From: Breznakiella homolactica
Lineage (GTDB): Bacteria > Spirochaetota > Spirochaetia > Treponematales > Breznakiellaceae
Assembly: GCF_016616095.2 (NCBI RefSeq)
Contig: NZ_CP067089.2
Location: 124,001 to 188,000 of the forward strand
Direction of reading: 5' to 3'
Length of the DNA stretch: 64,000 nt
The first letter of the stretch is position 1. Each line of letters begins with the position of its first letter. A program made the translations under genes and the position numbers. The notes beneath the pieces were generated by a model that ran no database searches, had not been told where the DNA came from, and saw only the letters and a list, made by a program, of their open reading frames with translations. Positions 5,736 to 55,791 of the stretch are shown here, in pieces.

Positions 5736-6079
5736 GGAAGCACCGGGTCTGACAAGCCGGAAAGTTCCCGGGTGATACCGGTTCTGCGGGTCCTGTCATA
5801 GAGAAATGGGTTTGGCTCCGTGTCGGCCTGCGGCCTCGAAAGTCGCTCAAACCCATTTCTCTACGACACCCGTCGCTACCAGTACGGCCGGGGACTTTCC
5901 GGCTTAACCGGCTCGGTGCTGCCCTGCCGCGGGGGCTGCTCCCCCTGGCTCCAGCCTTGTCGCATTACGGGTGGAGTTTTGCGGAGCGAAGCTCCTAAAA
6001 GACTTGTCGTCATTGGCGGCAAGTCTTACGCCACCCCCACTTCTGGTTCCTGTTTTAGTAATACCTACCGTTAGGTATA
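5736..6079 (-). repeat. Long-hairpin repeat element, copy A (hairpin plus tail module)
   Basis: The hairpin half covers 5740-5919. Outer arms 5740-5765 and 5894-5919 pair imperfectly; inner arms 5799-5814 (TAGAGAAATGGGTTTG) and 5848-5863 pair perfectly over 16 bp. They enclose the conserved tip 5815-5847, which read on the minus strand begins GCGACTTTCGAGGCCG. The tail half, about 5923-6050, contains GGGGGCTGCTCCCCC, a GGAGC-gaa-GCTCC hairpin (5983-5995), an AAGACTTG/CAAGTCTT stem (5999-6006/6020-6027) and CCACCCCCACTTCTGGTTCC. The far end carries CTACCGTTAGGTATA (6065-6079), shared exactly with copy D. There is no gene here; short open frames beginning MSACGLESRS arise from the tip sequence in several copies. 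The element lies between the divergent pseudokinase and rpoZ genes. Confidence 0.9.
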
Positions 6080-6181
6080 TACGCTTTCCTGAACTCCGCA
6101 GGGGGCCGTACTGACAGCTGATGGCCGCCACACAAATCCGGCTCTATTCTCCCTCACCCGGCAACCCCTGCTAAGACAGGG

Positions 6182-6376
6182 CGCCTGCATTATGTGCAGT
6201 GAGGCGGCAGCGAAGCATGGTGGGAAAAAGTAACGCGGGGTGCCTGAGGGTAAGGGCTTTGAGCGACTTTCGAGGCCGCAGGCCGACGAGGAGCCAGAGC
6301 CCTTACCCTCAGGCGGTACCCCCAGTTGATTTGTACCTCCATGCTTCGCTGCCGGGTACCACCTGTAATGCAGGCG
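6182..6376 (+). repeat. Long-hairpin repeat element, copy B (hairpin only)
   Basis: Three nested perfect inverted repeats: 6182-6192 with 6366-6376 (11 bp), 6206-6220 with 6339-6353 (15 bp), and 6242-6258 with 6298-6314 (17 bp, GCCTGAGGGTAAGGGCT). The tip 6261-6295 is the conserved core GAGCGACTTTCGAGGC and onward. The arms differ completely from copies A, C, D and E. There is no tail module. Bases 6080-6181 between copies A and B show no gene or other recognisable feature. The element ends just 11 bp before the rpoZ -35 box. Confidence 0.9.
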
Positions 6377-6386
6377 TCCTGCCGTC

Positions 6387-6416
6387 TTTACACGGAACGT
6401 TTTTTTTGTATATACT
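6387..6416 (+). promoter_or_regulatory. rpoZ promoter, predicted leaderless
   Basis: TTTACA (6387-6392), 18-bp spacer, TATACT (6411-6416). The start codon is only 7 bp beyond the -10 box, so transcription would begin at or next to the A of ATG and no ribosome site is possible. Confidence 0.65.
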
Positions 6417-6423
6417 GATATAT

Positions 6424-6615
6424 ATGATTTTTCCATTAGAAGAACTCATTGAATACAAAGGTAATATGTATGAAATTACCTGCGCCGCTTCCCGGCGGGC
6501 CTATCAGCTTTCCATGCTCAAGGATCCTGAAATCGAAGCAAACGACGGCAAGGTGGTTTCCCTGGCAGCCCGCCAGTTATTTACCGACGCCATAGAATTC
6601 CGCCTCGAAGAATAG
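6424..6615 (+). CDS. rpoZ: RNA polymerase omega subunit
   Basis: 63 aa starting MIFPLEELIEYKGNMYEIT. The segment SRRAYQLSMLKD followed by GKVVSLAARQLF matches the helix of omega that latches the beta-prime subunit; the short length fits spirochaete omega proteins. It assists assembly and stability of RNA polymerase. The start is chosen by family length and by the promoter immediately upstream; an in-frame upstream extension would run into repeat B. miaA follows after 4 bp, so the two are co-transcribed. Confidence 0.8.
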   Translation: MIFPLEELIEYKGNMYEITCAASRRAYQLSMLKDPEIEANDGKVVSLAARQLFTDAIEFRLEE

Positions 6616-6619
6616 CGAG

Positions 6620-7603
6620 ATGCCGGGTCAAAAGCCCATGCCCGTATGTATTCTCTTCGGGCCCACGGCGTCGGGAAAGACCGAGATCCTGGAAAGGCTT
6701 TTTGCCGGCCCCGGCGCGGTTGTCCCCGCGGAGGTCGTTTCGGCGGACTCCATGCAGGTCTACCGCGGAATGGATATCGGTACCGCGAAACCCGGACAGG
6801 AACTCCTTGACCGCCTTCCTCACCATCTCATTGATATTAAAAACCCCGATGAACAGTTTAACGCCGGTGAATTTGTCCGCCTGGCGGATGATGCCTGCTG
6901 CGCCATAACCGGCCGGGGACGGCTTCCGGTGATTTCCGGGGGAACCGGATTTTATCTGCGGAATTTTGTCCTGGGCCTCCCCGAAACGCCGCCGTCGGAC
7001 CCGGAAATCCGGATGCTTTTACAGGAAGAACTCCGTTCCCGGGGTGCTGAAAAACTTATGGATGAGCTGGTCCGATACGATCCGGTCAGCGCCGCCCGGA
7101 TCCATATCAACGATGAATACCGGATACTCCGGGCTCTGGAGGTATACCGCAGCTCCGGGCGGCCGCTCAGTTCCTTTTCCCAGACCGGTTCGGCTCCGGA
7201 CAGCGACAGTCCCCGGCCGGCGTACCGGTTCCTCATTATCGGACTCCGGCGTCCCCGGGAGGAACTGTACCATAGAATAAACCGGCGGGCCGCGGAAATG
7301 TTCAGCCAGGGACTGCCGGAGGAAGTCCGGCGGCTTTGTGAACAGGGCTACGGTCCCGGCTACCCCGGGCTGCGGGCCATCGGCTATCAGGAATTTTTCG
7401 TTCCCGGGGAAGACGGCGGGATGGTACTCTCCCGGGATCTTCCGGGGGTTGAAGTCCTTATTGCCCGGAACAGCCGGCGCTACGCCAAACGGCAGATTGT
7501 GTTTTTTTCCTCCATCCCCGATGCCGTGTGGATCGACGCCGGCCCCGACGCGGCCGCCGCCATCCGCTCAAAACTTGAAGCATTCCTCGCTTCCGGGGCC
7601 TGA
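6620..7603 (+). CDS. miaA: tRNA dimethylallyltransferase
   Basis: 327 aa, a usual length. It adds a dimethylallyl group to N6 of A37 in tRNAs reading UNN codons, using the isoprenoid product of the pathway that dxs (downstream) feeds. Visible are the P-loop GPTASGKTEIL (residues about 11-21), the DSMQVYRGMDIGTAKP signature, the HHLIDIKNPDEQFNAGEF segment and GGTGFYLRNFVLGLPETPP. The C-terminal tRNA-binding region has LRAIGYQEF and RNSRRYAKRQIVFF. It is translationally linked to rpoZ. The stop lies 8 bp before repeat C. Confidence 0.97.
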   Translation: MPGQKPMPVCILFGPTASGKTEILERLFAGPGAVVPAEVVSADSMQVYRGMDIGTAKPGQELLDRLPHHLIDIKNPDEQFNAGEFVRLADDACCAITGRGRLPVISGGTGFYLRNFVLGLPETPPSDPEIRMLLQEELRSRGAEKLMDELVRYDPVSAARIHINDEYRILRALEVYRSSGRPLSSFSQTGSAPDSDSPRPAYRFLIIGLRRPREELYHRINRRAAEMFSQGLPEEVRRLCEQGYGPGYPGLRAIGYQEFFVPGEDGGMVLSRDLPGVEVLIARNSRRYAKRQIVFFSSIPDAVWIDAGPDAAAAIRSKLEAFLASGA

Positions 7604-7611
7604 CCTTGCTT

Positions 7612-7890
7612 TATCCAGAAACCAGAAGTGGGGGTAGCGTAATAGAGTTTTCCGCATAAGCGGAAAACTCTATGGAGCGAGGGGGAGCAGCCCCCCTGGA
7701 AGGGCAGCACTGAGCCGGTTAAGCCGGAAAGCCCCCGGCTGTAATGGTAACACCGGGTGTCATAGAGAAATGAGTTTGAGCGACTTTCGAGGCCGCAGGC
7801 CGACACGGAGCCAAACCCATTTCTCTATGACAGGACCCGCTGATTCGGTAAATACGGAGGCTTTCCGGCTTGTCAGACTCGGTGCTCCCC
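7612..7890 (+). repeat. Long-hairpin repeat element, copy C (tail module plus hairpin)
   Basis: This is copy A in opposite orientation, diverged. The tail (7616-7700) has CCAGAAGTGGGGG, a perfect 13-bp stem with an ATAA loop (7643-7655/7660-7672, TAGAGTTTTCCGC) and GGGGGAGCAGCCCCCC. The hairpin half has outer arms 7706-7731 and 7861-7886, and inner arms 7763-7778 and 7812-7827, identical to copy A except for one base that creates a single A-C mismatch. The tip is 7779-7811. The tail is on the 5' side of the tip, as in A and D. Copies A and C thus flank rpoZ-miaA as a large inverted pair. Confidence 0.9.
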
Positions 7891-7894
7891 CCTA

Positions 7895-7923
7895 TTGACC
7901 TTTTCGTTTCTGTAATTCATACT
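7895..7923 (+). promoter_or_regulatory. Candidate promoter of the 30-aa basic protein gene
   Basis: TTGACC (7895-7900), 17-bp spacer, CATACT (7918-7923). It starts right at the end of repeat C. A small CCTGT-taa-ACAGG hairpin follows in the leader. Confidence 0.45.
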
Positions 7924-8008
7924 ATGGTAAGTTTCCTGTTAAACAGGCCAACCCTGCACCTGTTCGTCTTATCGGGATTCATTTTATTGATTGAAAGGAG
8001 ACTCAGAA

Positions 8009-8101
8009 GTGCCCTGTGGAAGAAAGCGCAAACTTAGAAAGATTGCCACACATAAACGGAAGAAGAAGCTGAGAAAGAACAGACACAAGAACAAACGATA
8101 G
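8009..8101 (+). CDS. 30-aa basic protein, AURKAIP1/COX24-like small ribosomal protein
   Basis: GTG start with GAAAGGAG 8 bp upstream; 30 codons then TAG. The product MPCGRKRKLRKIATHKRKKK continues LRKNRHKNKR: 18 of 30 residues are Lys or Arg. This matches the tiny proteins annotated as AURKAIP1/COX24-domain in spirochaetes and Bacteroidetes, related to mitochondrial mS38, so a role on the small ribosomal subunit is likely. It has its own promoter and a strong terminator, so it is a monocistronic gene. Identification is from memory of the family, supported by the extreme composition. Confidence 0.8.
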   Translation: MPCGRKRKLRKIATHKRKKKLRKNRHKNKR

Positions 8102-8114
8102 TCCCCTTTATAAT

Positions 8115-8146
8115 ACCGCGGGAAGGTTTTACCGCGGTTTTTTTTC
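8115..8146 (+). terminator. Rho-independent terminator after the 30-aa gene
   Basis: ACCGCGG (8115-8121) pairs with CCGCGGT (8132-8138) across a 10-nt loop, followed by eight T residues. Confidence 0.88.
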
Positions 8147-8218
8147 TTTATTGATATCGCCAGGATATTCTACTAAAAGCAGGTTTTATTGTGTTGTTCA
8201 TACGCCGGGGCCGTCATC

Positions 8219-8247
8219 CTGACGAAATCCCCGTTTTGATATATACT
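8219..8247 (+). promoter_or_regulatory. dxs promoter, predicted near-leaderless
   Basis: CTGACG (8219-8224), 17-bp spacer, TATACT (8242-8247). The dxs ATG is at 8258, 10 bp after the -10 box, leaving a leader of about 4 nt and no ribosome site. Confidence 0.6.
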
Positions 8248-8257
8248 GTTTAGTAGT

Positions 8258-10168
8258 ATGTATAAAAAAGAGCCGCTTCTTGCACATATCCATGACCCCA
8301 ATGATCTATCCCGTCTTTCGTATTCAGAGTTAAGTCAATTGGCGGATGAAATCCGCGATGTAATTATTTCCACCGTAAGCCATACCGGCGGCCATCTGGC
8401 TTCCAATCTCGGGGTTGTGGAGCTGACCATAGCGCTGCACCGGGTATTTGACTCACCTAAAGATAAGATTGTCTGGGATGTAGGCCATCAGTGCTACACC
8501 CATAAACTGCTCACCGGACGGTACGGGGAATTCAGCGGGCTCAGGCAGAACGGCGGAATTTCCGGGTTTCCGAAGCGTTCCGAAAGTCCCCACGACGCGT
8601 TTAATACCGGCCACGCGTCGACTTCCATCTCAGCGGCTCTGGGACTCCTGGCCGGGGAATCCCTCAAAGGCGGCGATGGCAAGGCGGTGGCCGTAATCGG
8701 CGACGGCGCTCTTACCGGGGGACTGGCCTTTGAAGCCCTCTCCCACGCGGGACAGCTCGGCCTGCCCCTGGTGGTTATCCTCAACGACAATAAAATGTCC
8801 ATAAGCCCCAATGTGGGCGGACTTTCAAAATACCTGAGCCGGCTCAGCATGAAGAGCCGGTACCAGCGGATCCGCCGCTGGATAGACCGTTCGGTCAAGG
8901 GTTTTCCCTTGATCGGGGCTTCGTTCTACGACATCATGGTCCGGATGAAGCGCGGGGTAAAGGCCCTTTTTTATACGGACAACTTTTTCGTGGATCTCGG
9001 GTTTGAGTACGTCGGCCCCATAGAGGGCCACCATATCCAGCGGCTGGAACAGGTCCTGGAGGACGTAAAAAAACTGGGGAAGCCCGTGGTGGTCCACGTT
9101 ATTACCCAGAAAGGGAAGGGTTATCAGTTCGCCGAATCGGACCCCAGTTCTTACCATGGGGTTTCCCCGTTTTCCGTGGACGACGGTTTATTCGAACGCC
9201 GGGAAGCGCCCGTGTTTACCGAAGCCTTTGGTTCAGCCATGGTGCGGAAGGCGCGCGCCGATGAACGGGTGGTGGCCATTACGGCGGCCATGGAGAAGGG
9301 GACGGGGCTGGCACCCTTCAGAACGGAATTCCCAGCCCGGTTCTACGATGTGGGTATTGCCGAAGAGCACGCGGTGAGTTTCGCCGCCGGTCTGGCCGCC
9401 CAGGGGCTCCGGCCGGTGGTGGCGGTGTATTCCACCTTTATCCAGCGTTCCGTGGACCAGGTGATCCACGATGTGGCCCTCCAGAACCTCCCCGTAACCT
9501 TTGCCCTGGACAGGTCGGGTTTTGTCGGCGACGACGGAGAAACCCACCAGGGCCTGTTCGATATCGCGCTGTTCCGTTCGGTGCCGAATATGACTATCCT
9601 TGCCCCGGCGGGAGCCGCGGAACTGGATCTGATGCTCGACTGGGGGACCGGCGGGCAGGGACCTGCCGCTATCCGGTATCCCAAGGCTCCGTTCCCGGAA
9701 AATACCGAAGCTTTTTTTTGTCCCCTGGAACAGGGCCGGGGGGTATTTATTAAACGGAAGAATAGTCCGGTATGCCTCGCCTTTACCGGGAGCCTCTATT
9801 CCCAGGTCATCGAAGCGGAGTCGATACTGAATGCCGAAGGGCTGTCCGCGGATCTGTACAACCTGCGGTTTCTCAAACCCCTGGATGAAGAGTATCTCCT
9901 TTCAGTATTAAACCGGTATAAGACGGTTTTCTTTATTGAAGAGGGAATGAAACAGGGCGGCATCGGAGAGTACGCCGCCGAACTGGCCCTCCGGATGGGG
10001 GCGTCCGCATCCATCCGTATCCTGGGAGTTTCGGACAATTTCGCCGGACTGGGATCCCGGAAACAGCTTCTGGAATTGTGCGGCCTGGACGCGGCCGGGA
10101 TTGCCGGCTCGGTACTGGCGGCCTGCCGGAAGGAAGTTTTTTCCTATAAAAAGGCGGTGCTGGGATGA
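8258..10168 (+). CDS. dxs: 1-deoxy-D-xylulose-5-phosphate synthase
   Basis: 636 aa, normal length. It condenses pyruvate and glyceraldehyde 3-phosphate to DXP, the first step of the MEP isoprenoid pathway, and is a thiamine-diphosphate enzyme. The TPP motif GDGALTGG begins at about residue 148 and ends with NDNKMSISPNVG; the catalytic glutamate lies in DVGIAEEHAVSFAAG (about residues 362-376). SHTGGHLASNLGVVELT near residue 45 is the conserved N-terminal histidine region. It heads a run of ten genes; folP overlaps its stop by 4 bp (ATGA). Confidence 0.97.
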   Translation: MYKKEPLLAHIHDPNDLSRLSYSELSQLADEIRDVIISTVSHTGGHLASNLGVVELTIALHRVFDSPKDKIVWDVGHQCYTHKLLTGRYGEFSGLRQNGGISGFPKRSESPHDAFNTGHASTSISAALGLLAGESLKGGDGKAVAVIGDGALTGGLAFEALSHAGQLGLPLVVILNDNKMSISPNVGGLSKYLSRLSMKSRYQRIRRWIDRSVKGFPLIGASFYDIMVRMKRGVKALFYTDNFFVDLGFEYVGPIEGHHIQRLEQVLEDVKKLGKPVVVHVITQKGKGYQFAESDPSSYHGVSPFSVDDGLFERREAPVFTEAFGSAMVRKARADERVVAITAAMEKGTGLAPFRTEFPARFYDVGIAEEHAVSFAAGLAAQGLRPVVAVYSTFIQRSVDQVIHDVALQNLPVTFALDRSGFVGDDGETHQGLFDIALFRSVPNMTILAPAGAAELDLMLDWGTGGQGPAAIRYPKAPFPENTEAFFCPLEQGRGVFIKRKNSPVCLAFTGSLYSQVIEAESILNAEGLSADLYNLRFLKPLDEEYLLSVLNRYKTVFFIEEGMKQGGIGEYAAELALRMGASASIRILGVSDNFAGLGSRKQLLELCGLDAAGIAGSVLAACRKEVFSYKKAVLG

Positions 10169-11013
10169 CCGGAACGGTACACCTGGCCAGCGGCGGTACC
10201 CTCGATTTTTCGGGGCCGCCCCTGGTAATGGCCATTGTCAACTGCAACGGCGATTCTTTTTACGGTCCCAGCCGGAGCACCGGCGGGGACGCGGTTGAAA
10301 AAGCCCTTAAAGCCGCGGAAGACGGAGCCGGGATCATCGATTTCGGCGCGGAGTCCACCCGGCCGGGGGCTTCCTACGTTACGGCGGAGGAAGAAATCGA
10401 ACGCCTTGTACCTGTTATAGAGGCGTTCCGGAAACAGTCTTCGGTGGCGGTGTCCGTGGATACCCGGAAAGCCCAGGTCGCCCGGGCGGTCCTCGATGCG
10501 GGAGCTGATATTATCAATGATATTTCTTCCCTGGAGGATGATCCCGATATGGCGCCCCTCTGCGCCGAACGGGGCGCCATGGTGGTGCTGATGCACAAAA
10601 AGGGTATTCCCGAAACCATGCAGGACGAACCCTATTACGAGGATGTGGTCTCCGATGTCAGGACTTACCTGATCGAGGCGATCGACCGGGCCAAAAACAA
10701 CGGCATTCCGGAACAGCGGATAATCCTCGATCCCGGTTTCGGGTTCGGCAAACGCCTGGAGGACAATCTCGATATACTGGCTCATCTTGCAGAAATCTGC
10801 GGTACGGTTTATCCTGTATTGGTAGGGCTTTCCCGGAAAAGTTTTATCGGGGAAATCACCGGCCGGCCCGCGGAGGACCGTCTCGCCGGAACCCTGGCGG
10901 CAAATACGGCTGCCCTTTTCCAGGGCGCGGGAATTCTCCGGGTACACGATGTGCCGGATACCGTTGATCTCGTCAAAATCTATTATGCCCAGTCCCAACG
11001 GCAAGGACGGTAA
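10165..11013 (+). CDS. folP: Dihydropteroate synthase
   Basis: 282 aa. It joins p-aminobenzoate to 6-hydroxymethyl-dihydropterin pyrophosphate in folate synthesis. Signatures: MAIVNCNGDSFYGPSRS (a variant of the usual NVTPDSF loop), DGAGIIDFGAESTRPGA, ADIINDISSLEDDP, RIILDPGFGFGKRLEDN and GLSRKSFIG. It overlaps dxs by 4 bp, so translation is probably coupled. The gap to the next gene is 5 bp. Confidence 0.96.
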   Translation: MTGTVHLASGGTLDFSGPPLVMAIVNCNGDSFYGPSRSTGGDAVEKALKAAEDGAGIIDFGAESTRPGASYVTAEEEIERLVPVIEAFRKQSSVAVSVDTRKAQVARAVLDAGADIINDISSLEDDPDMAPLCAERGAMVVLMHKKGIPETMQDEPYYEDVVSDVRTYLIEAIDRAKNNGIPEQRIILDPGFGFGKRLEDNLDILAHLAEICGTVYPVLVGLSRKSFIGEITGRPAEDRLAGTLAANTAALFQGAGILRVHDVPDTVDLVKIYYAQSQRQGR

Positions 11014-11018
11014 CACTC

Positions 11019-11855
11019 GTGGAATGGTTTCAGCGGCTTTCATCCCTCTATAACCTGGTTCGCCCGGTTCTTGATATAGCCATTCTTGCCTTTCTGCTGT
11101 ACAAAGCCTACGATCTTCTGGTTAAAACCCAGGCGGTGCAGCTCGTTAAGGGGGCGGGTTTCCTTGCCCTGGTTTACGGCCTGGCTTTTTTCCTTAAATT
11201 AAATACCCTCCAATGGATACTGAATCTTCTCGCCCCGGGACTTTTTATCGCCATTGCCATTGTATTCCAGCCGGAGCTCCGGAAGATAATTATGCGTATC
11301 GGCCAGGGGAACCTGTTCCGGCTGGACGCGAAACCCCGCCTGGGACAGCTTGAGGCGGTGGTTACCGCGGCGGAGATCCTGTCCGAACAGCGGCGGGGGA
11401 TGCTGGTGGTTTTTCCCCGGCGCATCAGCATAAAAAATATCATCGATACCGGAACCAAACTCAACGCGGACCTTTCATCGAGCCTTATTATTACTATTTT
11501 CGCCTTTGACGGCCCGCTGCACGACGGGGCGGTGGTAATCCAGAACGGCCGCGTCGCCGCCGCCGGATGCCTGCTCCCCCTTTCGGAGCAACAGGATATA
11601 CGGAAAAGCTTCGGCACCCGGCACCGGGCCGCCCTGGGGATGTCCGAACAGTCCGACGCGGTTATCCTGGTAGTTTCCGAAGAAACCGGGGCAATATCCC
11701 TGGCCTACGATACGAAGCTGTTTTACGACTTATCACCCATAGAGGTTCAGAGAAAACTGAAGGAAATTATCGACCGCGGCGGCCGGAGCGGGGAAGCTGA
11801 GCAGGCGGCGGTTCCGGCTATGGACGACGGAAAGGATGTCTTCAGTGAACGGTAG
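11019..11855 (+). CDS. cdaA: Membrane-bound diadenylate cyclase (c-di-AMP synthase)
   Basis: 278 aa with a GTG start. Three hydrophobic helices lie in the first 90 residues (VLDIAILAFLLYKAYDLL; LVKGAGFLALVYGLAFF; ILNLLAPGLFIAIAIVF). The DAC domain follows with both catalytic motifs: LHDGA (about residue 166) and GTRHR (about 197-201). It makes cyclic di-AMP from two ATP at the membrane. The gene after it encodes its usual partner YbbR/CdaR, overlapping by 20 bp, the arrangement seen in many Gram-positives and spirochaetes. Confidence 0.95.
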   Translation: MEWFQRLSSLYNLVRPVLDIAILAFLLYKAYDLLVKTQAVQLVKGAGFLALVYGLAFFLKLNTLQWILNLLAPGLFIAIAIVFQPELRKIIMRIGQGNLFRLDAKPRLGQLEAVVTAAEILSEQRRGMLVVFPRRISIKNIIDTGTKLNADLSSSLIITIFAFDGPLHDGAVVIQNGRVAAAGCLLPLSEQQDIRKSFGTRHRAALGMSEQSDAVILVVSEETGAISLAYDTKLFYDLSPIEVQRKLKEIIDRGGRSGEAEQAAVPAMDDGKDVFSER

Positions 11856-12819
11856 GAAATTTTTTGAAAAGGCCGTGGAAAACTGGCCTGCCAAGGTTCT
11901 TTCCGTCGCATTGGCCCTGGTCCTTTTTGTATTCCATGAGATGAGTATGCTGGAGGACCGGTTTTTTTCCGTTCCCCTTAAGATCGAAACCAATGGAAAT
12001 CTCGTTCCTTCCAGTTCCTACCCCCGGATGATCAGGGTATCCCTCCGCGGAGAGGCCAACAGTATTTATCCAATTCTCGAAGATGATATTGAAGTGTATG
12101 TCGACCTGACAAAATACAACGATCCCGGTTTCTACAAAGCGCCGATCCAGATCCGGAAAAAGGGTACCGCCGTCGGGGTTGATCCCCTGGAGATAAACGT
12201 TGATCCCCTGGAAATAGCCGTCGGCCTGGACCAGAAACTGAGTAAATACGTGCCCCTGACTCCCAGTTTCCGGGGATACCTCGAAACCGGGTACGAACTG
12301 GTTTCCTACACCATGGATCCATCCCAGGTTGAAATCGAAGGACCCCAGGGGATCATCAACGGAATAACCGAGCTTCCCACCGATTATATAGAACTCAACG
12401 GGAGGCATGAGAATTTTACCACCACGGTCCGGGTCCTCAACCGGGATCCGCTCATGATGATCCGGGGCAGCGGCACCGTGGAGTTCCGGGGTTTTATCCA
12501 GGAACTTATCATGCTGAAAAATTTCGATAACCTCCTCATTGGTATCACCGGGTTAAATGACAAGTTCCTGGCTTCCCCTGAGGTGAGTGTCGGAAGTGTC
12601 CGGCTGGAAGGCGGGCAGAACCGGCTGGAGGATTACATTCCCTGGGGGGCGATCATGACCCTGGATTGTGCCAATATTGATGAGCCCGGAACGTATTCGA
12701 TCCCGGTGCAGGTTACCGTTCCGCCGCTGTTTACTGTGGTCCGGTACGATCCCCAGGAAGTAATCGTGGAGATCATTCCCAGTGAACATGAGGATGATCA
12801 TGAAGAAGACCAAGGTTAG
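11836..12819 (+). CDS. ybbR: YbbR-domain protein, CdaA regulator-like
   Basis: 327 aa. One N-terminal membrane helix (residues about 13-33, WPAKVLSVALALVLFVF) followed by repeated all-beta YbbR modules facing outside; the repeats show as the recurring pattern VPLTPSFRGYLETGYEL and ILxNFDNLLIGITGLN. YbbR (CdaR) proteins bind and modulate the diadenylate cyclase encoded just upstream. The ATG at 11836 overlaps cdaA; a GTG three codons in (11845) is an equally good start relative to GGAAAGGA. Confidence 0.88.
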   Translation: MSSVNGRKFFEKAVENWPAKVLSVALALVLFVFHEMSMLEDRFFSVPLKIETNGNLVPSSSYPRMIRVSLRGEANSIYPILEDDIEVYVDLTKYNDPGFYKAPIQIRKKGTAVGVDPLEINVDPLEIAVGLDQKLSKYVPLTPSFRGYLETGYELVSYTMDPSQVEIEGPQGIINGITELPTDYIELNGRHENFTTTVRVLNRDPLMMIRGSGTVEFRGFIQELIMLKNFDNLLIGITGLNDKFLASPEVSVGSVRLEGGQNRLEDYIPWGAIMTLDCANIDEPGTYSIPVQVTVPPLFTVVRYDPQEVIVEIIPSEHEDDHEEDQG

Positions 12820-12824
12820 GCAGT

Positions 12825-13199
12825 ATGATAGCAGGAATCGGTATTGATGTTGTCCATGTCCGCCGGCTCGACCGGTGGATGCAAATTCCCGGTCTGCTGG
12901 AACGGTACTTCCATCCCGACGAACTCCGGACGGCCCGTTCCAAAGGGCGCGGGACGAGCCTCTCCCTGGCCGCCCGGTTCGCCGCAAAGGAGGCTTTCGG
13001 CAAGGCTTTGGGAACAGGCTTAAGCGGGATCGTCCTCAAGGATATCATGGTGGTGAACCGGCACAACGGACAGCCGGAGATCAGTCTCTTCGGTACGGCC
13101 CTGGCCGCCCTGGAGCGGAGCGGTGCCGACAAAGTGCATATTTCCCTTACCCATGAACGGGATAACGCCATCGCCATGATTGTACTTGAGGCGGGGTAA
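12825..13199 (+). CDS. acpS: Holo-[acyl-carrier-protein] synthase
   Basis: 124 aa, typical of AcpS. It transfers 4'-phosphopantetheine from CoA to ACP. The magnesium-binding D8 is in GIGIDVVHVRRL and the glutamate in RFAAKEAFGKALGTG (about residue 56); SLTHERDNAIAMIVLE closes the fold. It is 5 bp after ybbR in the same operon. Bases 13200-13259 to the next gene hold a small AAAACT/AGTTTT hairpin without a clear T run. Confidence 0.96.
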   Translation: MIAGIGIDVVHVRRLDRWMQIPGLLERYFHPDELRTARSKGRGTSLSLAARFAAKEAFGKALGTGLSGIVLKDIMVVNRHNGQPEISLFGTALAALERSGADKVHISLTHERDNAIAMIVLEAG

Positions 13200-13259
13200 A
13201 CCAAGAGGCAATTTTAAAACTGAGAAAGTTTTGAGAGAAGCTCTAAGGCGGAAAGACCA

Positions 13260-14892: not shown

Positions 14893-14894
14893 TC

Positions 14895-31985: not shown

Positions 31986-32033
31986 AGATACATTGAAACG
32001 CAAGCGGCTCAAGAGTTCAAGGGGGGAGCACAG

Positions 32034-32396
32034 GGTTGTATATGCAGCAAGCATATAGGAAAACCGTATCTGCGGGTCCTGTCGGATAAAAATGGGAATG
32101 GCTCCTCGTCGGCCTGCGGCCTAGAAAGTCGCTCATTCCCATTTTTATCCACCACCCGGCGTTACCCTTACACCTAAGTACTTGCTGCCTCTACTTGCCG
32201 GGTACCATCTTTTCTGGCGGGCTGCTCCCCCTGGCTCCAGCCTTGCCGAACCATCTGTGGAGTTTTGCTCCGCAAAACTCTAAAAGACTTGTTGTCAGGA
32301 TCGGCAAGTCTTACGCCACCCCCACTTCTGGTTCCCGGGTAAGTGGCGGATCGTATCCTATGTTGTAACACTTAAATATATCTACCGTTAGGTATA
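32034..32396 (-). repeat. Long-hairpin repeat element, copy D (hairpin plus tail module)
   Basis: Outer arms 32044-32059 and 32173-32188 pair imperfectly; inner arms 32084-32100 (GGATAAAAATGGGAATG) and 32134-32150 pair perfectly over 17 bp. The tip is 32101-32133. The tail, about 32215-32335, repeats the copy A tail, but its first hairpin here is GAGTTTTGC-tcc-GCAAAACTC (32260-32280). The far end has CTACCGTTAGGTATA (32382-32396), as in copy A. It fills the gap between the uracil glycosylase start and the end of the UPF0280 gene; nothing else is seen there. Confidence 0.9.
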
Positions 32397-47801: not shown

Positions 47802-47879
47802 TGCCTCGCTCCTTTCCGTTCTGATTCTACGGTACTATGATATACATAAAATAAAACCGCGGGAAGGGGCGCCGGAAAT

Positions 47880-49994: not shown

Positions 49995-50204
49995 GGTTGG
50001 GGCGCAGTCTCCTCTACCGGCCGGAACTTTTTTCCGAAGGTTCCGGCCGTTCATGCAGCAGAAAAAATTTAACGATAAAAGCCGCTGGGTTTTTTCAAAA
50101 CCACGGACTTTCCTGTTCAATGACAGTAACTTAATTAAGTATAGTACTGGATTTGGAAAGATTCCACAAACTGCGGGGTATGAAGTTGATTTTTTTAGGC
50201 AGGA

Positions 50205-50927
50205 TCATGACAGGATCAGTTTTTTTCCATGAGAAAGGGCTTTTTCCGCCAAATCCCGGAGCGCTTCCTCAGACGGCGGCGGATGTTGATTCCAGAGCGG
50301 ATCAATGCAGTTTCCCGGTATGAATTTTCGCAGATACCAGGGTGATTCATCCGTAAGGGGCGCCAAACCGGCAATATCATCTTCCTGGAAAAAACCGGCG
50401 GGCAGGGCAAGGCTCCGGAATTCATGGTCAATTCCGGAATCCCGGAGCAGGGCCGCGGTTTTTTTCAGCATTTCCCCGGGGCCTGGTTCCGGGAAAGCGG
50501 CTCCCGGAGGCAGGAGCTGTCCGTAGCGGCCGGGAGACAGTTTGAGATCCAGGGCGATAAAATCCGGCCGGGTTTCCCTCCGGGACAGCAATTTCTCCAG
50601 AACGTTGGGACAGAGTCCGTTGGTATCGAGTTTAACCAGGAGATTCATTTTTTTGATGCGTTCGATCAGGGCGGGCAGGCTGGCGCAGAGGGTCGGCTCC
50701 CCGCCGCTCAGCACAACGCCGCCCAATACGGAAGACCGTTTCTCGATATGTTCGAGAACCGTATCGAGGCCGGTCATCCCGCCGGTATCGGCCTCATCGG
50801 GAACGACCAGCCCCCGGTTGTGGCACCAGGGGCACCGCAGGTTGCATCCCGGAAAGAAAATAACCGCCGCCAGTTTTCCCGGATAATCAATGAGGCTGGT
50901 TTTCCTGAAAGCGACCCGCGGCGCCAT
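50205..50927 (-). CDS. nrdG: Anaerobic ribonucleotide reductase activating protein
   Basis: 240 aa radical SAM protein: C-x3-C-x2-C in CNLRCPWCHN, the GGE motif in VLSGGEPTLCASL, and LVKLDTNGLCPNVLEKLL. It forms the glycyl radical on class III ribonucleotide reductase. Last gene of the nrdR operon. It is close to the NrdG/PflA-like branch that reads RKTSLIDYPGKLAAVIFFPG at the N-terminus. Confidence 0.93.
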   Translation of the reverse strand: MAPRVAFRKTSLIDYPGKLAAVIFFPGCNLRCPWCHNRGLVVPDEADTGGMTGLDTVLEHIEKRSSVLGGVVLSGGEPTLCASLPALIERIKKMNLLVKLDTNGLCPNVLEKLLSRRETRPDFIALDLKLSPGRYGQLLPPGAAFPEPGPGEMLKKTAALLRDSGIDHEFRSLALPAGFFQEDDIAGLAPLTDESPWYLRKFIPGNCIDPLWNQHPPPSEEALRDLAEKALSHGKKLILS

Positions 50928-50928
50928 G

Positions 50929-51504
50929 TTATATGGCTAAGGCTGTTTCCGCTTCCCTGCCCGCGGGTACGGCCGCGGTATCCAGGGAGGATGCGAAGGA
51001 CGCTATGTCCAATGCGTTCCGCGCCCTGGCGAGCTCTCTGCCGTCCTCACCGAGGAGAATCGCGGTGGGGGTGGAAAGAACATTCCGCCTGACCGCCTCC
51101 GCCAGTCCCGATTCGGTATCGGCGTTAACCATGTCCACGGGGATACCGAGCTTCCCCGCGGCATCCTTGGCCGCCGGGCATGCCGGACACGCCGGACGCA
51201 CAAAGAGCATGAGCCGGTTTTCCCCGCCTGCCCCAACGGGTACCCCGGAAAGGGTGTCATCCTCAAAGGATGAAGCCCTTTCCGGAGCTTCGTTCCGTTC
51301 CCTCCCGGGCAGCGGGAATGCTCCGCCGGGGACCGTAAAGAGTTTCCGCTCACCGTACTCTTCACGCTTCCCCTTGTTCCAGTTGCGCACCGACCGGTAA
51401 TACCCGACGATGCGGCTGTACACTTCCGTCGGCGTCCCTTCCGCTGATGAAAGGGCCTCCCTCGCCGCGGCCAGTTCCTGCTTAATCACCTCAAGGTTTC
51501 TCAT
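50929..51504 (-). CDS. Separate glycyl-radical segment of NrdD fused to a CPAC redoxin domain
   Basis: 191 aa; GGGAG 7 bp before the ATG. Residues 28-50 (YSRIVGYYRSVRNWNKGK and on) match the C-terminal glycyl-radical loop of class III ribonucleotide reductases; G34 in RIVGY is the expected radical site. A variable linker (57-95) leads to a thioredoxin/glutaredoxin-like domain with C106-P-A-C109. The NrdD gene just upstream ends after its zinc site and has no such loop. The two are in the same reading frame, separated by 21 codons with two TAA stops. The redoxin would suit a thiol-dependent rather than formate-dependent enzyme. Confidence 0.75.
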   Translation of the reverse strand: MRNLEVIKQELAAAREALSSAEGTPTEVYSRIVGYYRSVRNWNKGKREEYGERKLFTVPGGAFPLPGRERNEAPERASSFEDDTLSGVPVGAGGENRLMLFVRPACPACPAAKDAAGKLGIPVDMVNADTESGLAEAVRRNVLSTPTAILLGEDGRELARARNALDIASFASSLDTAAVPAGREAETALAI

Positions 51505-51564
51505 CGTATTCTCCCAAATCTTCCGCCCAGGGCAGGGCCGTATTTTTTAGTTAATTCCTGTTTT

Positions 51565-53724
51565 TTATCCCGCGGCCATGGCCGCGCCGAGTTCTTCTTC
51601 AAGTTCCTTGATCTTCTGCCTCAGGGACTGTTCCTTTTCCTCCCGGCACCTGGGGCAGGTAAAGTGCTCACCCCTGATATACCCGTGGACCGGACAGACC
51701 GAAAAGGTCGGCGAAATCGTGTAGTAGGGGACCCGGTAGTTGTGGGCAATGGCCTTTACCAGATCCCGGCAGGTCCGCCAGTCCTCAATTGATTCCCCGA
51801 GGAATGCGTGGAAAACGGTTCCCCCGGTATACGCCGCCTGGAGCCGCTCCTGCAGATCAAGGGCATCGAAAATATCCTCGGTCTGCATCACCGGCAGCTG
51901 GGTCGAATTGGTGTAATAGGGTTCATCCGTTCCGGAGGTGATGATTTGGGGGTAGTGTTTTTTGTCGTGCTTCGCCAGGCGGTAGGACGTCGACTCCGCG
52001 GGGGTCGCCTCCAGGTTAAATAGTTCCCCGGTTTCCTCCTGGAAATCCGCCAGCTTCCGGCGCATAAAATCGAGCACCTCCAGGGCGAAATCCCGGCCTT
52101 CTTCGGCGGCGATGGTTGTATCCTTTCCCAGGAAGTTGAGCAGGCATTCGTTCATACCCACAAGTCCGATGGTATTGAAGTGGCTGTCTAGGTTTGCCAG
52201 GTACCGTCTCGTGTAAGGGAAAAGTCCCGCCTCGAGGAGCCGCACCACAACCTTCCGCTTTACCAAAAGGCTTTCCTTGGCAAGCTCCATGAGCCGGCCC
52301 AGGCGGCGGTAAAAATCCTTTTTGTCCCTTGCGAGGTAGCCGATCCGGGGAAGGTTGATGGTTACCACCCCCACGGATCCCGTCAGCTCGTCGGACCCGA
52401 AGAGCCCGCCCCCCCGCTTGCGGAGTTCCCGCTTGTCCAGCTGGAGCCGGCAGCACATGGACCGCACATCCCCGGGGTCAAGGTCGGAGTTGACGAAGTT
52501 CTGAAAGTAGGGCGTCCCGTACCGGGCGGTCATCTCAAAGAGGAGCCGGGCGTTTTCACTGTCCCAGTCGAAATCCTCGGTGATGTTGTACGTCGGTATG
52601 GGATACTGGAAGCCCCGGCCTTCGGCGTCGCCCTCAAGCATGAGTTCGATGAATATTCTGTTAACCCGGTCCATTTCTTCACGGCAGTCACCGTAGGTAA
52701 ATTCCTGTTCCTCTCCGCCGACCACCGCCGGCTTGTCTTTGAGGTCCGCGGGAACGGTCCAGTCCAGGGTAATATTGGTAAATGGCGCCTGGCAGCCCCA
52801 GCGGCTTGGGGTATTAACCCCGAAGACGAAACTCTGGAGGCACTGCTTAATCTCCCGGTCGCTGAGACTATCCGCTTTTATAAAGGGAGCGATATAGGTA
52901 TCGAAGGAACTGAACGCCTGGGCCCCGGCCCATTCGTTCTGGAGGCATCCCAGGAAGTTGACCGCCTGCTGCATCAGTGTGGAAAGGTGTTTCGCCGGTT
53001 TTGAGGTAATCTTGTCCGGAACCCCGCCGAGGCCTTCCTTGATAAGCTGCCGCAGGGACCAGCCCGCGCAGTACCCGGAAAACATGGAAAGGTCATGGAT
53101 ATGGAAATCCGCGTTCCGGTGGGCATCGGCGATTTCCGCTGAATAAATATTCTTGAGCCAGTAATTGGCGGTGATGCTTCCGGAATTATGGAGGATGAGC
53201 CCTCCCAGGGAATAATTGACATTGGCGTTTTCATTTACCCGCCAGTCGGATTGTTTGAGGTACCCGTCCATGGTGGAATCGATATCCAGCATGAGCTTTT
53301 TGGCGTCCCGGATGGCTTCGTGTTTTGCCCTGTAGAGTATATACGCCTTGGCCACCGCGGTTTCCCGGGAGTCGATGAGGGCGTTTTCTACTATGTCCTG
53401 GATTTCTTCTATCGCGGGAATTGAATTGGGATGCCGCGACGCCATCATAACCATGAGGAGTTCCTCAGCCCGGTCCGTTATGGCCAGAACCCGTCCGCGG
53501 CCGTCCGGAGAAGCGTCGCTCACCCCCGCCGCCTCAAATGCCTTGGCCACCGCCGCGGCGATCTTCGTCCGGTCGTAGGCTTCGATCTCCCCGGAACGTT
53601 TAACCACATAGCGCAGGGATATCCCCTGGGCCGGCATATCCCGGATTGTGTCCTTGTTATTCCGGTCTGTCCGCTGCTCATATCCCAGAACGGATTTCCA
53701 TTCCGGGAAAACCTCCTCATTCAT
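51565..53724 (-). CDS. nrdD: Anaerobic (class III) ribonucleoside-triphosphate reductase, catalytic part lacking the glycyl loop
   Basis: 719 aa from the ATG at 53724, which shares one base with the nrdR stop and lies behind GGGAGGG. An ATP-cone lies at about residues 37-125 (LRYVVKRSGEIEAYDRTKIA). The barrel has NFLGCLQNEWAGAQAFSSFD, the active-site cysteines in RSMCCRLQLDKRELR, and the zinc site CPVHGYIRGEHFTCPRC. The chain ends 30 residues after the zinc site in a helical tail, without RxxGY. It reduces NTPs to dNTPs with a glycyl radical, here probably supplied by the next gene product. Confidence 0.93.
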   Translation of the reverse strand: MNEEVFPEWKSVLGYEQRTDRNNKDTIRDMPAQGISLRYVVKRSGEIEAYDRTKIAAAVAKAFEAAGVSDASPDGRGRVLAITDRAEELLMVMMASRHPNSIPAIEEIQDIVENALIDSRETAVAKAYILYRAKHEAIRDAKKLMLDIDSTMDGYLKQSDWRVNENANVNYSLGGLILHNSGSITANYWLKNIYSAEIADAHRNADFHIHDLSMFSGYCAGWSLRQLIKEGLGGVPDKITSKPAKHLSTLMQQAVNFLGCLQNEWAGAQAFSSFDTYIAPFIKADSLSDREIKQCLQSFVFGVNTPSRWGCQAPFTNITLDWTVPADLKDKPAVVGGEEQEFTYGDCREEMDRVNRIFIELMLEGDAEGRGFQYPIPTYNITEDFDWDSENARLLFEMTARYGTPYFQNFVNSDLDPGDVRSMCCRLQLDKRELRKRGGGLFGSDELTGSVGVVTINLPRIGYLARDKKDFYRRLGRLMELAKESLLVKRKVVVRLLEAGLFPYTRRYLANLDSHFNTIGLVGMNECLLNFLGKDTTIAAEEGRDFALEVLDFMRRKLADFQEETGELFNLEATPAESTSYRLAKHDKKHYPQIITSGTDEPYYTNSTQLPVMQTEDIFDALDLQERLQAAYTGGTVFHAFLGESIEDWRTCRDLVKAIAHNYRVPYYTISPTFSVCPVHGYIRGEHFTCPRCREEKEQSLRQKIKELEEELGAAMAAG

Positions 53725-54182
53725 CAATTCCCTCCCAATTTTTTAATTTCCTGGACAAATTCTTCCAGATCTTTGAAATGACGGTACACCGAAGCAAAAC
53801 GAATGTACGCGACCTTATCAAGGGCTCCTAGTTTTTCCAGCACCAGGTCTCCGATGGTGCCGGCTTCGATTTCGTGGTTTACCTTGCCGACAATCGCGGC
53901 GGAATCTTCAATTTCGTTAACCAGACTTTCAATGGTCATCTGTGATACCGGGCGTTTTTCCAAAGCCCGCTGGACGCCGCGTTCAATTTTTGTCCGGTCA
54001 AAGGGCTCCCGGCGTCCGTCCTGTTTTATGACCATAAATTGTTTGTCTTCGATCCGTTCGTAACTGGTGAAGCGGGCACCGCAGCCGTTGCATTCCCGCC
54101 GCCTCCTGATGGCTTCCCCGTTTGCCAAGGTGCGGGACTCAATTACTTTGTCATCAAAATTGCCGCAGTGGGGGCAGCGCAC
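53724..54182 (-). CDS. nrdR: Transcriptional repressor NrdR
   Basis: 152 aa. Zinc ribbon C3/C6 and C31/C34 (MRCPHCGNFDDKVIE; ECNGCGARFTSYER), then an ATP-cone (VIKQDGRREPFDRTKIERGV). It senses dATP/ATP and represses ribonucleotide reductase genes. First gene of the operon, with two NrdR boxes in its promoter, so it is self-regulated along with nrdD and nrdG. Confidence 0.97.
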   Translation of the reverse strand: MRCPHCGNFDDKVIESRTLANGEAIRRRRECNGCGARFTSYERIEDKQFMVIKQDGRREPFDRTKIERGVQRALEKRPVSQMTIESLVNEIEDSAAIVGKVNHEIEAGTIGDLVLEKLGALDKVAYIRFASVYRHFKDLEEFVQEIKKLGGN

Positions 54183-54247
54183 TGATTTTCTCCTGTTTTT
54201 TGGGGAAATTTACGTTTTAGACTGAAAAAAAGCTGCGTATTCCTGAG

Positions 54248-54256
54248 TTATCCACA
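54248..54256 (+). promoter_or_regulatory. Consensus DnaA box in the nrdR leader
   Basis: TTATCCACA, exact match to the consensus, with weaker relatives at ATTCACAGA and GAATCCACA within the next 20 bp. DnaA regulation of reductase genes is known in E. coli; here it is only a suggestion. Confidence 0.35.
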
Positions 54257-54281
54257 TATTCACAGAATCCACAAGCAAAAC

Positions 54282-54344
54282 CTACTATATATGGTGTTTT
54301 ATTTTTTATAATTTAACTATAACACGCTATACATTGTGTCGCAA
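54282..54344 (-). promoter_or_regulatory. nrdR-nrdD promoter with two NrdR boxes
   Basis: Read on the minus strand: TTGCGA (54339-54344), 17-bp spacer, TATAGT (54316-54321). Box 2, ACACAATGTATAGCGT (54324-54339), occupies the spacer and matches 14 of 16 positions of the NrdR consensus as I recall it. Box 1, ACACCATATATAGTAG (54282-54297), lies downstream of the -10. The box centres are 42 bp apart, four helical turns, which suits cooperative binding by NrdR. Confidence 0.8.
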
Positions 54345-54453
54345 GAGCTATTAGAAAGAATTTACATAAAAAATCGTAAAAAAAAGCTTTTCCTTGAAAT
54401 AGCTCTTGTGCTACAGTTAGAGGATACCCCGGAAAAGGGGTCGGAGGGAGCCC

Positions 54454-55587
54454 ATGAAGATTGGGATTGACACTTTTGACTGTGACGGCGGAAAATCTGG
54501 GGTCGGCGTATATCTCATGCAGCTGCTCAAACGGATTCCTCCCTCCGGAGACCGGTATGAATTGTTCGGATGGGACTACGACCGGTATTCCTTCAGTGAC
54601 GCCGCAGGAGACCTTGAGTTTATTCCCCAGTGTTTTGTCAACGGCAGAACCGCCAATTCCCTGTGGCACCTGTTCAGATATCCCAAATTCGCGTCCTCCC
54701 GGGGATACAACGCCTGCTTTTTCCCCAGCGCCCACCGGCGGCTTCCGGGGAGTTCTCCCTGCCCGACCATCGGAACGGTCCATGATATGGCGGCCTACTG
54801 GGGTACCCGGCAGACCAGGGAGCATCTCGGCGCGGTGCTCCGGATGGTGCTTCCCAATTCCCTCAGGAAACTCGACCGGATCATTGCGGTAAGCAGCTGG
54901 GTTAAACAGGAACTGGTGGATGTTGCCCGGGTAAAGGAAGCAAAGGTTGAGGTGATTCCCAACGGCATTGATCTGGACGCGTTTTATCCCCGTCCGCGGA
55001 ATGAGGAAAGTGTGGTGCTTATCCAGCCTTTCAGTTTCCGCCGGCCCTATATCCTTTACGTTTCCCGGATTGATTATCCCGTAAAAAACCATATCCGGCT
55101 CATCGAAGCCTTCGGTATTTTCAAGGAGCGGACCCGCCATCCCCACCGGCTGGTTCTGGCCGGTTCCGACCGGAACGGCGCCGACAAGGTTAAGGCCGCG
55201 GCGGCAAAATCGAAATACCGGAATGATATTTTTTTTACCGGCCATTTTCCGTCCAAAAACCTCCCGGAGCTGTACTCCGGCGCGGATTTCGCGGTATTTC
55301 CGTCCATGTATGAAGGATTCGGCATGGGGGTGCTTGAAGCCATGGCCTCGGGGGTTCCCGTGGCCTGCGCCCGGGCGGCTTCGCTGCCGGAAGTGGCTGA
55401 CCACGCCGCCCTATATTTCGATCCCGCGGATGCCGAAGACATGGCGGACCGGATGGTTACCCTCACCACAAAGCGGGATATTTACCGGGAGTGCCGCGCC
55501 CTGGGACTCCAGCAGGCTCAGAATTTTTCCTGGGACCGCTGCGCCGAACGGACCCTAAAGCTTATCCACGAAACCGCCGGCCGCTAA
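54454..55587 (+). CDS. Glycosyltransferase family 4 (GT-B fold)
   Basis: 377 aa. N-terminal acceptor half with IGIDTFDCDGGKSGVGVYLM; C-terminal nucleotide-sugar half with VEVIPNGIDLDAF, RPYILYVSRIDYPVKNHIRL and the GT4 donor motif PSMYEGFGMGVLEAMASGVP (E-x7-E). It probably adds a hexose to a cell-surface polymer or lipid. GGAGGGAG lies before the ATG. It is monocistronic; repeat E follows directly. Confidence 0.9.
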   Translation: MKIGIDTFDCDGGKSGVGVYLMQLLKRIPPSGDRYELFGWDYDRYSFSDAAGDLEFIPQCFVNGRTANSLWHLFRYPKFASSRGYNACFFPSAHRRLPGSSPCPTIGTVHDMAAYWGTRQTREHLGAVLRMVLPNSLRKLDRIIAVSSWVKQELVDVARVKEAKVEVIPNGIDLDAFYPRPRNEESVVLIQPFSFRRPYILYVSRIDYPVKNHIRLIEAFGIFKERTRHPHRLVLAGSDRNGADKVKAAAAKSKYRNDIFFTGHFPSKNLPELYSGADFAVFPSMYEGFGMGVLEAMASGVPVACARAASLPEVADHAALYFDPADAEDMADRMVTLTTKRDIYRECRALGLQQAQNFSWDRCAERTLKLIHETAGR

Positions 55588-55594
55588 CCCGGCA

Positions 55595-55791
55595 GGGCAC
55601 CCGCAGTATTGCGGAGAACGGGCACAGACGCATGGTACGGCAAAGCAGCGGCGGGTGTCGAAGGAACGGGGAAAGGAGCGACTTTCGAGGCTGCAGGCCG
55701 CTGAGGAGCCCTTTCCCCGTTCCTTCGACGGGCCCCGCGGAATCGGCATTCCCATGCTTCTGTGGAAAGCACTCTAATACTGCGGGTGCCC
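55595..55791 (+). repeat. Long-hairpin repeat element, copy E (hairpin only)
   Basis: Outer arms 55595-55610 and 55776-55791 pair perfectly over 16 bp (GGGCACCCGCAGTATT). Inner arms 55657-55676 and 55710-55729 pair perfectly over 20 bp (GTCGAAGGAACGGGGAAAGG). The tip is 55677-55709, the conserved core with two or three substitutions. There is no tail module. It occupies the gap between two convergent genes and may also act as a terminator, although no T run follows. Confidence 0.9.

What the first reader, a model, noticed from the sequence alone, without database searches (positions are those of the whole stretch)
5736..55791. A family of long-hairpin elements with a constant tip and variable but complementary arms
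Five copies (5736-6079, 6182-6376, 7612-7890, 32034-32396, 55595-55791) share an almost identical tip of about 33-35 nt (starting GAGCGACTTTCGAGGC; positions 5815-5847 minus, 6261-6295, 7779-7811, 32101-32133 minus, 55677-55709). The arms on either side of the tip fall into four unrelated sequences (A/C, B, D, E) of 16-20 bp. Each is matched by its own exact reverse complement, apart from one A-C mismatch in copy C. So the pairing is kept while the sequence is not, the hallmark of selection for a folded RNA or cruciform, or of a copying process that rewrites one arm from the other. Outer arms repeat the pattern in B, D and E. All copies are intergenic. No transposase is seen. I know no named element that fits.
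Basis: seen in the sequence. Interest (0 to 1): 0.88.

Follow-up and report, generated by a model that had tools for sequence, protein, structure and literature searches.

The report
Scattered hairpins with rewritten, matching arms
A constant hairpin tip occurs about 175 times in this bacterial genome, and in 116 of the 126 copies read the two arms beside it match each other although they differ from copy to copy; many copies sit directly before a predicted gene promoter, related hairpins with the same base but other arms and mostly other tips occur in related bacteria, and they likely spread as small mobile DNA elements that we could not match to a named family.

Summary
Confirmed and enlarged. 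The tip occurs 175 times in the genome (control 4). Of 126 copies read, 116 have well-paired arms: 17.1 of 18 Watson-Crick pairs on average, against 9.3 when right arms are dealt to other copies; 121 left arms are distinct. Covariance models find relatives in 36 of 193 other genomes of the order. There the hairpin base (GGGGTG..CAGGACCCC) is kept while arms and mostly the tip differ, so the base, not the tip, is the deep signature. Two scaffolds (about 200 bp; mostly 260-336 bp) often stand as outward pairs (25 of 29 close pairs). In this genome 91 of 121 point at a downstream gene start, and in 50 of 61 a -35 box lies 0-14 nt beyond the element; other genomes show no such bias. Orthologous sites checked in relatives are empty. 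In type 1, inner hairpins are uncoupled from scaffolds; three are inverted. I read this as a non-coding mobile hairpin family, likely moved as folded DNA, its arms likely kept matched by DNA-level copying plus selection for the fold. REP/RAYT and integron attC were tested and do not fit. No mobilising enzyme or target duplication was found.

The parts
5734..6052 (-). Copy A, scaffold type 1 (5' domain, outer stem, base, arms, tip; ends at the gene side with GTGCTTCCCC)
5814..5848 (-). tip of copy A (arms 5794-5868, 19 of 20 Watson-Crick)
6061..6079 (.). palindrome ATACCTACCGTTAGGTAT between the two outward copies A and B
   Evidence: 6 exact and 23 with up to 3 mismatches in the 830 kb read
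6177..6381 (+). Copy B, scaffold type 2 (outer ends CAGGGCGCCTGCA.. / ..TGCAGGCGTCCTG); outward partner of A
6261..6295 (+). tip of copy B (18 of 20)
6387..6416 (+). promoter-like site of the next gene (rpoZ-like by eye), 5 nt beyond the end of copy B
   Evidence: 3 such sites in the region, 1.9 expected; a similar promoter stands without the element in four relatives
7616..7891 (+). Copy C, scaffold type 1
7778..7812 (+). tip of copy C (19 of 20; one A.C)
7895..7923 (+). promoter-like site 3 nt beyond copy C
   Evidence: empty site in relatives
32022..32337 (-). Copy D, scaffold type 1
32100..32134 (-). tip of copy D (18 of 20)
55593..55793 (+). Copy E, scaffold type 2
55676..55710 (+). tip of copy E (19 of 20)

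Best explanation
The five copies belong to a family of about 175 tip-bearing non-coding hairpin elements that likely spread as non-autonomous mobile DNA, would be recognised in folded form through their conserved base and tip by an enzyme we did not find, and likely keep their arms matched by arm-to-arm copying during DNA replication together with selection for the fold. Shown here: the copy number, the covariation of the arms, the base conserved across the order, the outward pairs, the position next to predicted -35 boxes in this genome, and empty orthologous sites at the one region checked. Inferred: that the elements moved, that folded single-stranded DNA is the form recognised, and that template switching or gene conversion between copies rewrites the arms. 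The arms would serve as a spacer helix whose sequence is free as long as it pairs.
For: Arm pairing is specific to each copy: 17.1 of 18 against 9.3 with shuffled partners in the 116 well-paired copies of 126 (the pairing frame was chosen to maximise pairing, for the control too); covariation score 0.470 against 0.119 shuffled and at most 0.117 slid (84 copies). The base is kept across genera while arms and mostly tips differ. The strict base pattern hit 7 contigs in the named genomes, all of Treponema MAGs, four MAGs in all. Mobility: at the rpoZ-miaA region, 0 of the 25 relatives' loci scanned (of 29 fetched, some cut short by contig ends) have a match at E<=0.1, where this genome has three; the same downstream gene follows miaA without an element in six relatives (L126, L128, L136, L138, L139, L144). 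Copying or exchange: along 77 near-neighbour links (of 114) there are 101 compensated, 64 one-sided and 4 other double changes; 52 compensated changes are transversions, against 11 one-sided mismatches that are neither G.T nor A.C. Arm distance is uncorrelated with flank distance (type 1 r=-0.08 and 0.02; type 2 r=-0.06 and -0.03), while left and right flanks of type 1 correlate (r=0.35, p=0.001). 3 of 105 tip-bearing inner hairpins are inverted relative to their base and 14 scaffolds carry another inner hairpin. PMC8794818 (abstract and passages) finds an excess of multiple compensations and of loop inversions alone in rRNA genes and ascribes them to template switching; compensation together with loop inversion was rare there and not in excess.
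Against: No transposase or recombinase could be linked to the family: the single Y1 gene has no tip copy in the 16 kb read around it, and no Y1 match was found in a complete genome that has copies (G027). No target-site duplication was apparent by eye. The copies are old (smallest flank distance between type 1 copies 0.076), so no recent jump is seen. Arms are not more variable than other free scaffold positions, so no special hypermutation is needed. The flank test is uninformative for type 2, whose left and right flanks do not correlate (r=0.04, p=0.18). In other genomes G.T exceeds A.C (24 to 10, p=0.024), which some RNA-level selection could give. Selection for the fold alone could also produce the compensated changes.
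Confidence: 0.5

Rival explanations
1. The hairpins are transcribed, and selection on a folded RNA (a processed RNA or leader with a protein-bound base and tip) keeps the arms paired; spread over the genome is by duplication.
For: Base, internal loop and tip are conserved like an RNA motif. In the tip a tandem G.A/A.G is kept in 76 of 84 copies, becomes two G-C pairs in 6, and changes on one pair only in 2. G.T exceeds A.C in other genomes (24 to 10).
Against: In this genome G.T and A.C are about equal (33 to 26, p=0.43), and G.T plus T.G is only 1.7 percent of 1955 arm cells. 53 of 121 copies lie between divergent genes, where neither neighbour's own transcript would read through them. No Rfam family in the window at the gathering score.
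Confidence: 0.2
2. The elements were kept for a host role at promoters: a long palindrome just upstream of the -35 box that extrudes under negative supercoiling or insulates the promoter.
For: 91 of 121 face a downstream gene start; best -35 box within 0-14 nt in 50 of 61 against about 14 by shuffling; elements in 39 of 79 divergent but 12 of 100 convergent spacers of the loci read (the loci were chosen around copies, so these fractions are biased).
Against: In other genomes no such bias is seen: of 60 copies, downstream gene same strand 24, opposite 20, unknown 8, inside an ORF 8. Similar promoters stand without the element in relatives.
Confidence: 0.15
3. They are REP/BIME repeats mobilised by the single RAYT gene of this genome.
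For: High copy number, palindromes, inverted pairs; one REP-associated tyrosine transposase is present (L089, NF047646 93.4 bits over cut-off 80).
Against: No tip copy in the 16 kb around it; by eye it is flanked by its own GGGACAGAGT-type repeats. Of 20 element-bearing family genomes (this one included) 10 are not among those with a Y1 match, one of them complete. Published REPs are 20-40 bp, mostly GTAG- or CGTC-tagged and mostly between co-directional or convergent genes (PMC3733652, abstract and passages).
Confidence: 0.05
4. They are integron attC-like sites worked by a tyrosine recombinase that reads folded single strands.
For: A conserved base, an unpaired bulge and a free stem are how attC works (recalled, no call). 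An integron-integrase-like recombinase exists here (TIGR02249 about 120 bits, below cut-off 265); a relative of it is found in 11 of 19 other element-bearing and 33 of 98 element-free family genomes (p=0.07).
Against: Copies are dispersed, not in cassette arrays; the recombinase gene has no copy in the 12-19 kb read around it in 3 of 4 genomes; 8 of 20 element-bearing genomes show no relative of it, one of them the complete G027. The one integron integrase over the cut-off (G027, of 6 genomes searched) has no copy within the 19 kb read.
Confidence: 0.07

Closest known systems
REP / BIME / REPIN repeats with RAYT transposases (PMC2817692 passages; PMC3733652 abstract and passages)
   Same: hundreds of intergenic palindromes per genome, inverted pairs, palindromy kept through base changes
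   Different: much longer (about 200 to 336 bp), free arms between a conserved base and tip, no GTAG/CGTC tag at the foot, facing promoters rather than gene ends in this genome, no RAYT link
MITEs and other small non-coding mobile repeats of bacteria (definition recalled; review only seen in a listing)
   Same: short, non-coding, dispersed, inverted ends (type 2 ends CAGGGCACCCGCAG / CTGCGGGTGCCCTG)
   Different: no parent insertion sequence and no target duplication found; the conserved part is the middle of the hairpin
Integron attC sites (recalled, no call)
   Same: a folded site with conserved base and freely varying paired stem
   Different: dispersed singly or in pairs, not in cassette arrays; no consistent integrase
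Borrelia plasmid intergenic hairpin repeats (PMC2674063, abstract and passages)
   Same: spirochaete intergenic repeats with compensatory changes
   Different: few loci, on plasmids; 60 and 122 nt in the passages read; no shared base or tip described there

Membership tests
REP/BIME with RAYT | 20-40 bp palindrome with GTAG or CGTC tag at the foot | tested here: not met
   consensus of types 1 and 2: foot is GGTAACGC[CG]GGGTG; definition from PMC3733652
REP/BIME with RAYT | cognate RAYT gene flanked by the repeats | tested here: not met
   no tip in 16 kb around the only Y1 match; 10 of 20 element-bearing family genomes are not among those with a Y1 match
REP/BIME with RAYT | high copy number and inverted pairs | tested here: met
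   175 tips; 25 of 29 close pairs outward
Integron attC | clustered with gene cassettes and an integron integrase | tested here: not met
   dispersed; integrase over cut-off in 1 of 6 genomes, no copies within the 19 kb read around it
MITE | terminal inverted repeats of a parent transposon | tested here: inconclusive
   type 2 has inverted ends; a parent was sought only among Y1, reverse transcriptase and integron-integrase families
MITE | target-site duplication | tested here: inconclusive
   none apparent by eye at 44 type-1 copies; boundaries uncertain by a few bases
Any Rfam RNA family | match at gathering score | tested here: not met
   0 matches in the window; in 5600-8000 only matches below gathering score, mostly microRNA models, at E up to 5
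Product of template switching | multi-base compensation and inverted loops | tested here: met
   footprints as in PMC8794818. Selection alone could also give the compensation

The most novel reading that the evidence does not exclude
A new class of structure-read mobile DNA in the treponemes: an unknown enzyme recognises the folded single strand by its base and tip, inserts it just upstream of -35 boxes, and the arm sequence is irrelevant and is continually rewritten from the other arm, so that the element is inherited as a shape rather than as a sequence.
Probability: 0.25. Interest if true: 0.82.

Novelty: new variant of a known kind. Interest (0 to 1): 0.6.

Why it matters
It gives well over a hundred parallel natural hairpins in one genome, and relatives across an order, in which sequence and pairing can be separated. 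That makes the open question of how long stems stay matched (slow selection through mismatches, or arm copying in replication) directly testable. It also points to an unidentified mobilising system that can put a long palindrome right next to promoters.

Tried and rejected
Rfam: nothing at the gathering score. RAYT link: tested and dropped. Retron reverse transcriptase: one match in the genome, St85-like below cut-off, no tip copies in the 17 kb read. Integron integrase and an Xer-like recombinase: weak co-occurrence only (11 of 19 against 33 of 98, p=0.07). Search for an autonomous version: four outward pairs 0.7-7 kb apart in the loci read enclose what look by eye like ordinary genes; their proteins were not searched against a library. 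Hypervariable arms: dropped, since arm diversity (0.35-0.43) is no higher than that of free scaffold positions (0.45-0.56, ungapped count). A promoter bias outside this genome: not seen. Viral contigs: the tip pattern gave 0; a looser base pattern gave 10 stretches that I did not read. Paper searches for a named element listed nothing that fits; of these I read only abstracts and passages of PMC2674063, PMC3733652 and PMC2817692 (the last, passages only), and most subscription journals are not held.

Limits: the gene calls behind searches come from a home-made hexamer caller that was not validated. 126 copies were read out of 175; loci were chosen around listed copies, exact tips first. The model searches scored at most 32 and 19 candidates per genome, so copy counts elsewhere are lower bounds. 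In one search, 26 of the 30 loci were scanned. The genome sets are taken to be the same draw (118, 116 and 118 genomes).
Full report
What is there. The five copies are real. The tip GAGCGACTTTCGAGGC occurs 91 times forward and 84 reverse with up to 2 mismatches in the 4,646,109-base genome; the reversed-pattern control gives 4. The base-plus-arms pattern CSGGGTGNC..GNCAGGNCCC occurs 103 times exactly, control 1 (a few of the listed places have no tip and look like chance). I fetched loci around the listed copies and read 126 tips.

Pairing. Of 126 copies, 116 have at least 13 of 18 Watson-Crick arm pairs; these average 17.1, against 9.3 (maximum 9.9 in 200 shuffles) when right arms are dealt to other copies; 121 of 126 left arms are distinct. 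On 84 aligned copies the 34-pair structure has 481 cells changed on both sides against 133 shuffled, and falls apart when slid by 1-3 columns. The tip is structured: 2G-33C, 3C-32G, a tandem G.A/A.G, 6C-29G, and a GGCC-NNN-GGCC hairpin. The tandem is kept in 76 of 84, becomes two G-C pairs in 6 and changes on one pair only in 2. In 15 of 126 copies the right arm starts 46-56 nt after the tip start instead of about 35; those that I looked at carry an extra small hairpin there.

Anatomy. There are two scaffolds around the same inner hairpin. Type 1 runs from about CAGGAACCAGAAGTGGGGG to GTGCTCCCCC; 44 copies measure 211-336 bp, 39 of them 260 or more. Type 2 is about 200 bp in the window and ends in TGCGGGTGCCCTG. 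Both share GGTAACGC[CG]GGGTG before the arms and CAGGACCC after them. Of 29 neighbouring tips closer than 700 bp, 25 point outward; the single '--' pair is a tip inverted within an outward scaffold. Of 148 places matching the left base, 102 have the tip in the usual direction, 3 inverted, 14 another inner content (13 of them a hairpin of the ATGAAAAGAAATACCGC type, the last a longer relative of it) and 29 no right base by my pattern.

Position. Of 121 copies with two neighbours, 53 lie between divergent genes, 38 run with both neighbours, 16 against both and 14 between convergent genes, so 91 face a gene start. Among the 61 of these with a recognisable end and enough sequence, the best -35 hexamer starts 0-14 nt beyond the end in 50; shuffling predicts about 14. 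In the window, copy C ends 3 nt and copy B 5 nt before predicted promoters, though the scan as such finds no more promoters in that region than chance (3 against 1.9). Across other genomes the bias is absent (24 same strand, 20 opposite, 8 unknown, 8 inside an ORF, of 60). The promoter position may therefore be a feature of this genome or of where insertions were tolerated.

Gain in this lineage. The miaA region was fetched from relatives. In 26 of the 30 loci, one of them this genome's own, the model finds 3 matches, all in this genome's own locus. Six relatives keep the gene that follows miaA with no element between; upstream of rpoZ, four relatives (L127, L128, L135, L140) show a GTCTTTACA promoter without one. 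This shows empty sites at one region; movement is inferred from them.

Relatives. In 57 other genomes the tip gives two single hits with one mismatch and no visible arms; a longer tip pattern gives none in the named genomes. But the model R1 finds matches in 20 of 118 family genomes, this one included, and R2, rebuilt from them, in 37 of 194 genomes of the order, this one included, in three families. There the base is kept, the arms are again different and paired (of 61 places with the base, 45 pass the pairing filter and 41 of these have distinct first 12 bases), and the tip is mostly another one; G016 keeps a related tip by eye. The strict base pattern hit 7 named contigs, all of Treponema MAGs, from four MAGs. 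G027, a complete 3,239,340-base genome, also shows an outward pair.

Copying or selection. Joining each copy to its nearest relatives by arm sequence, 77 of 114 links are close; on them 101 changes are compensated, 64 one-sided and 4 double but unpaired; 52 compensated changes are transversions, while only 11 one-sided mismatches are neither G.T nor A.C. One-sided G.T and A.C are 33 and 26 of 1955 cells here and 24 and 10 of 690 elsewhere. If folded RNA were the only target, G.U should be much better tolerated than A.C (general knowledge, no call); here it is not clearly so, elsewhere it is mildly. Arms show no correlation with their own flanks within type 1 (51 copies) or type 2 (42 copies); type 1 flanks correlate with each other (r=0.35, p=0.001), type 2 flanks do not (r=0.04), so only type 1 is informative. 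Near-identical arms in unlike flanks and unlike arms in near-identical flanks suggest exchange of the inner hairpin between copies. PMC8794818 (abstract and passages) ascribes multiple compensations and loop inversions in RNA genes to template switching. Both footprints are present here, but selection for the fold can give the compensation too, and I cannot separate them.

What moves it. Unknown. The genome has one Y1 match (a REP-associated tyrosine transposase by NCBIfam), flanked by its own GGGACAGAGT repeats by eye and with no tip in the 16 kb around it. Of 20 element-bearing family genomes, 10 are not among those with a Y1 match. One reverse transcriptase, retron-like, is found. An Xer-like recombinase co-occurs weakly (11 of 19 other element-bearing against 33 of 98 element-free genomes, p=0.07). 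No target duplication was evident.

Verdict. A real, large family of non-coding hairpin elements that I could not match to a named one, REP/BIME-like in lifestyle but built differently: conserved base, free but matched arms, a tip that is constant within this genome.

Noticed in passing
L028:5255, L044:5300, L052:6088 and other fetched loci: A second inner hairpin (ATGAAAAGAAATACCGC..GCGG..TTTTTTTCAT) sits in the same scaffolds in place of the constant tip; 14 tip-less scaffolds in all, 13 with this kind and one longer relative.
   Followed up: partly
window 6061-6079 and about 32378-32396; L014, L021, L022: A palindrome ATACCTACCGTTAGGTAT or a near relative lies between the outward hairpins or at their outer end in several loci (6 exact, 23 with up to 3 mismatches in 830 kb).
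   Followed up: partly
L048:5285 (-), L048:9206, L049:5254 (-), L056:5403 (-), L057:3432 (-), L021:5307 (-), positions as: A recurrent variant appears to lack about 11 bases of the left arm next to the tip (AAACGACTTTCG), so pairing is shortened.
   Followed up: no
L067:5000, L048:5000: Copies whose two arms look like different arm types, as if recombined at the tip (by eye).
   Followed up: no
L065:5000, 7212, 9347, 12863 and L066:5000: Spaced, closely alike type 1 copies in a region with RHS-like coding sequence (by eye); a duplicated gene array carries copies in L113/L114 of another genome.
   Followed up: no
L089:1474-1977 (own genome 2483342-2483845): REP-associated tyrosine transposase, the only Y1 match of the genome, flanked by GGGACAGAGTAT-type repeats.
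   Followed up: partly
L090:1288-2479: Retron-like reverse transcriptase (St85-like, below cut-off) with an upstream helix-turn-helix-like ORF (by eye) in a stretch of 40 percent GC.
   Followed up: no
L180:8823-10076: Tyrosine recombinase with an N-terminal extension; relatives in 45 of 118 family genomes, this one included.
   Followed up: partly
G027:C1:1926820-1927779: Integron integrase over the curated cut-off (375 bits), with none of these hairpins in the 19 kb read around it.
   Followed up: no
L194-L203: Ten viral contigs match a loose base pattern; not read.
   Followed up: no
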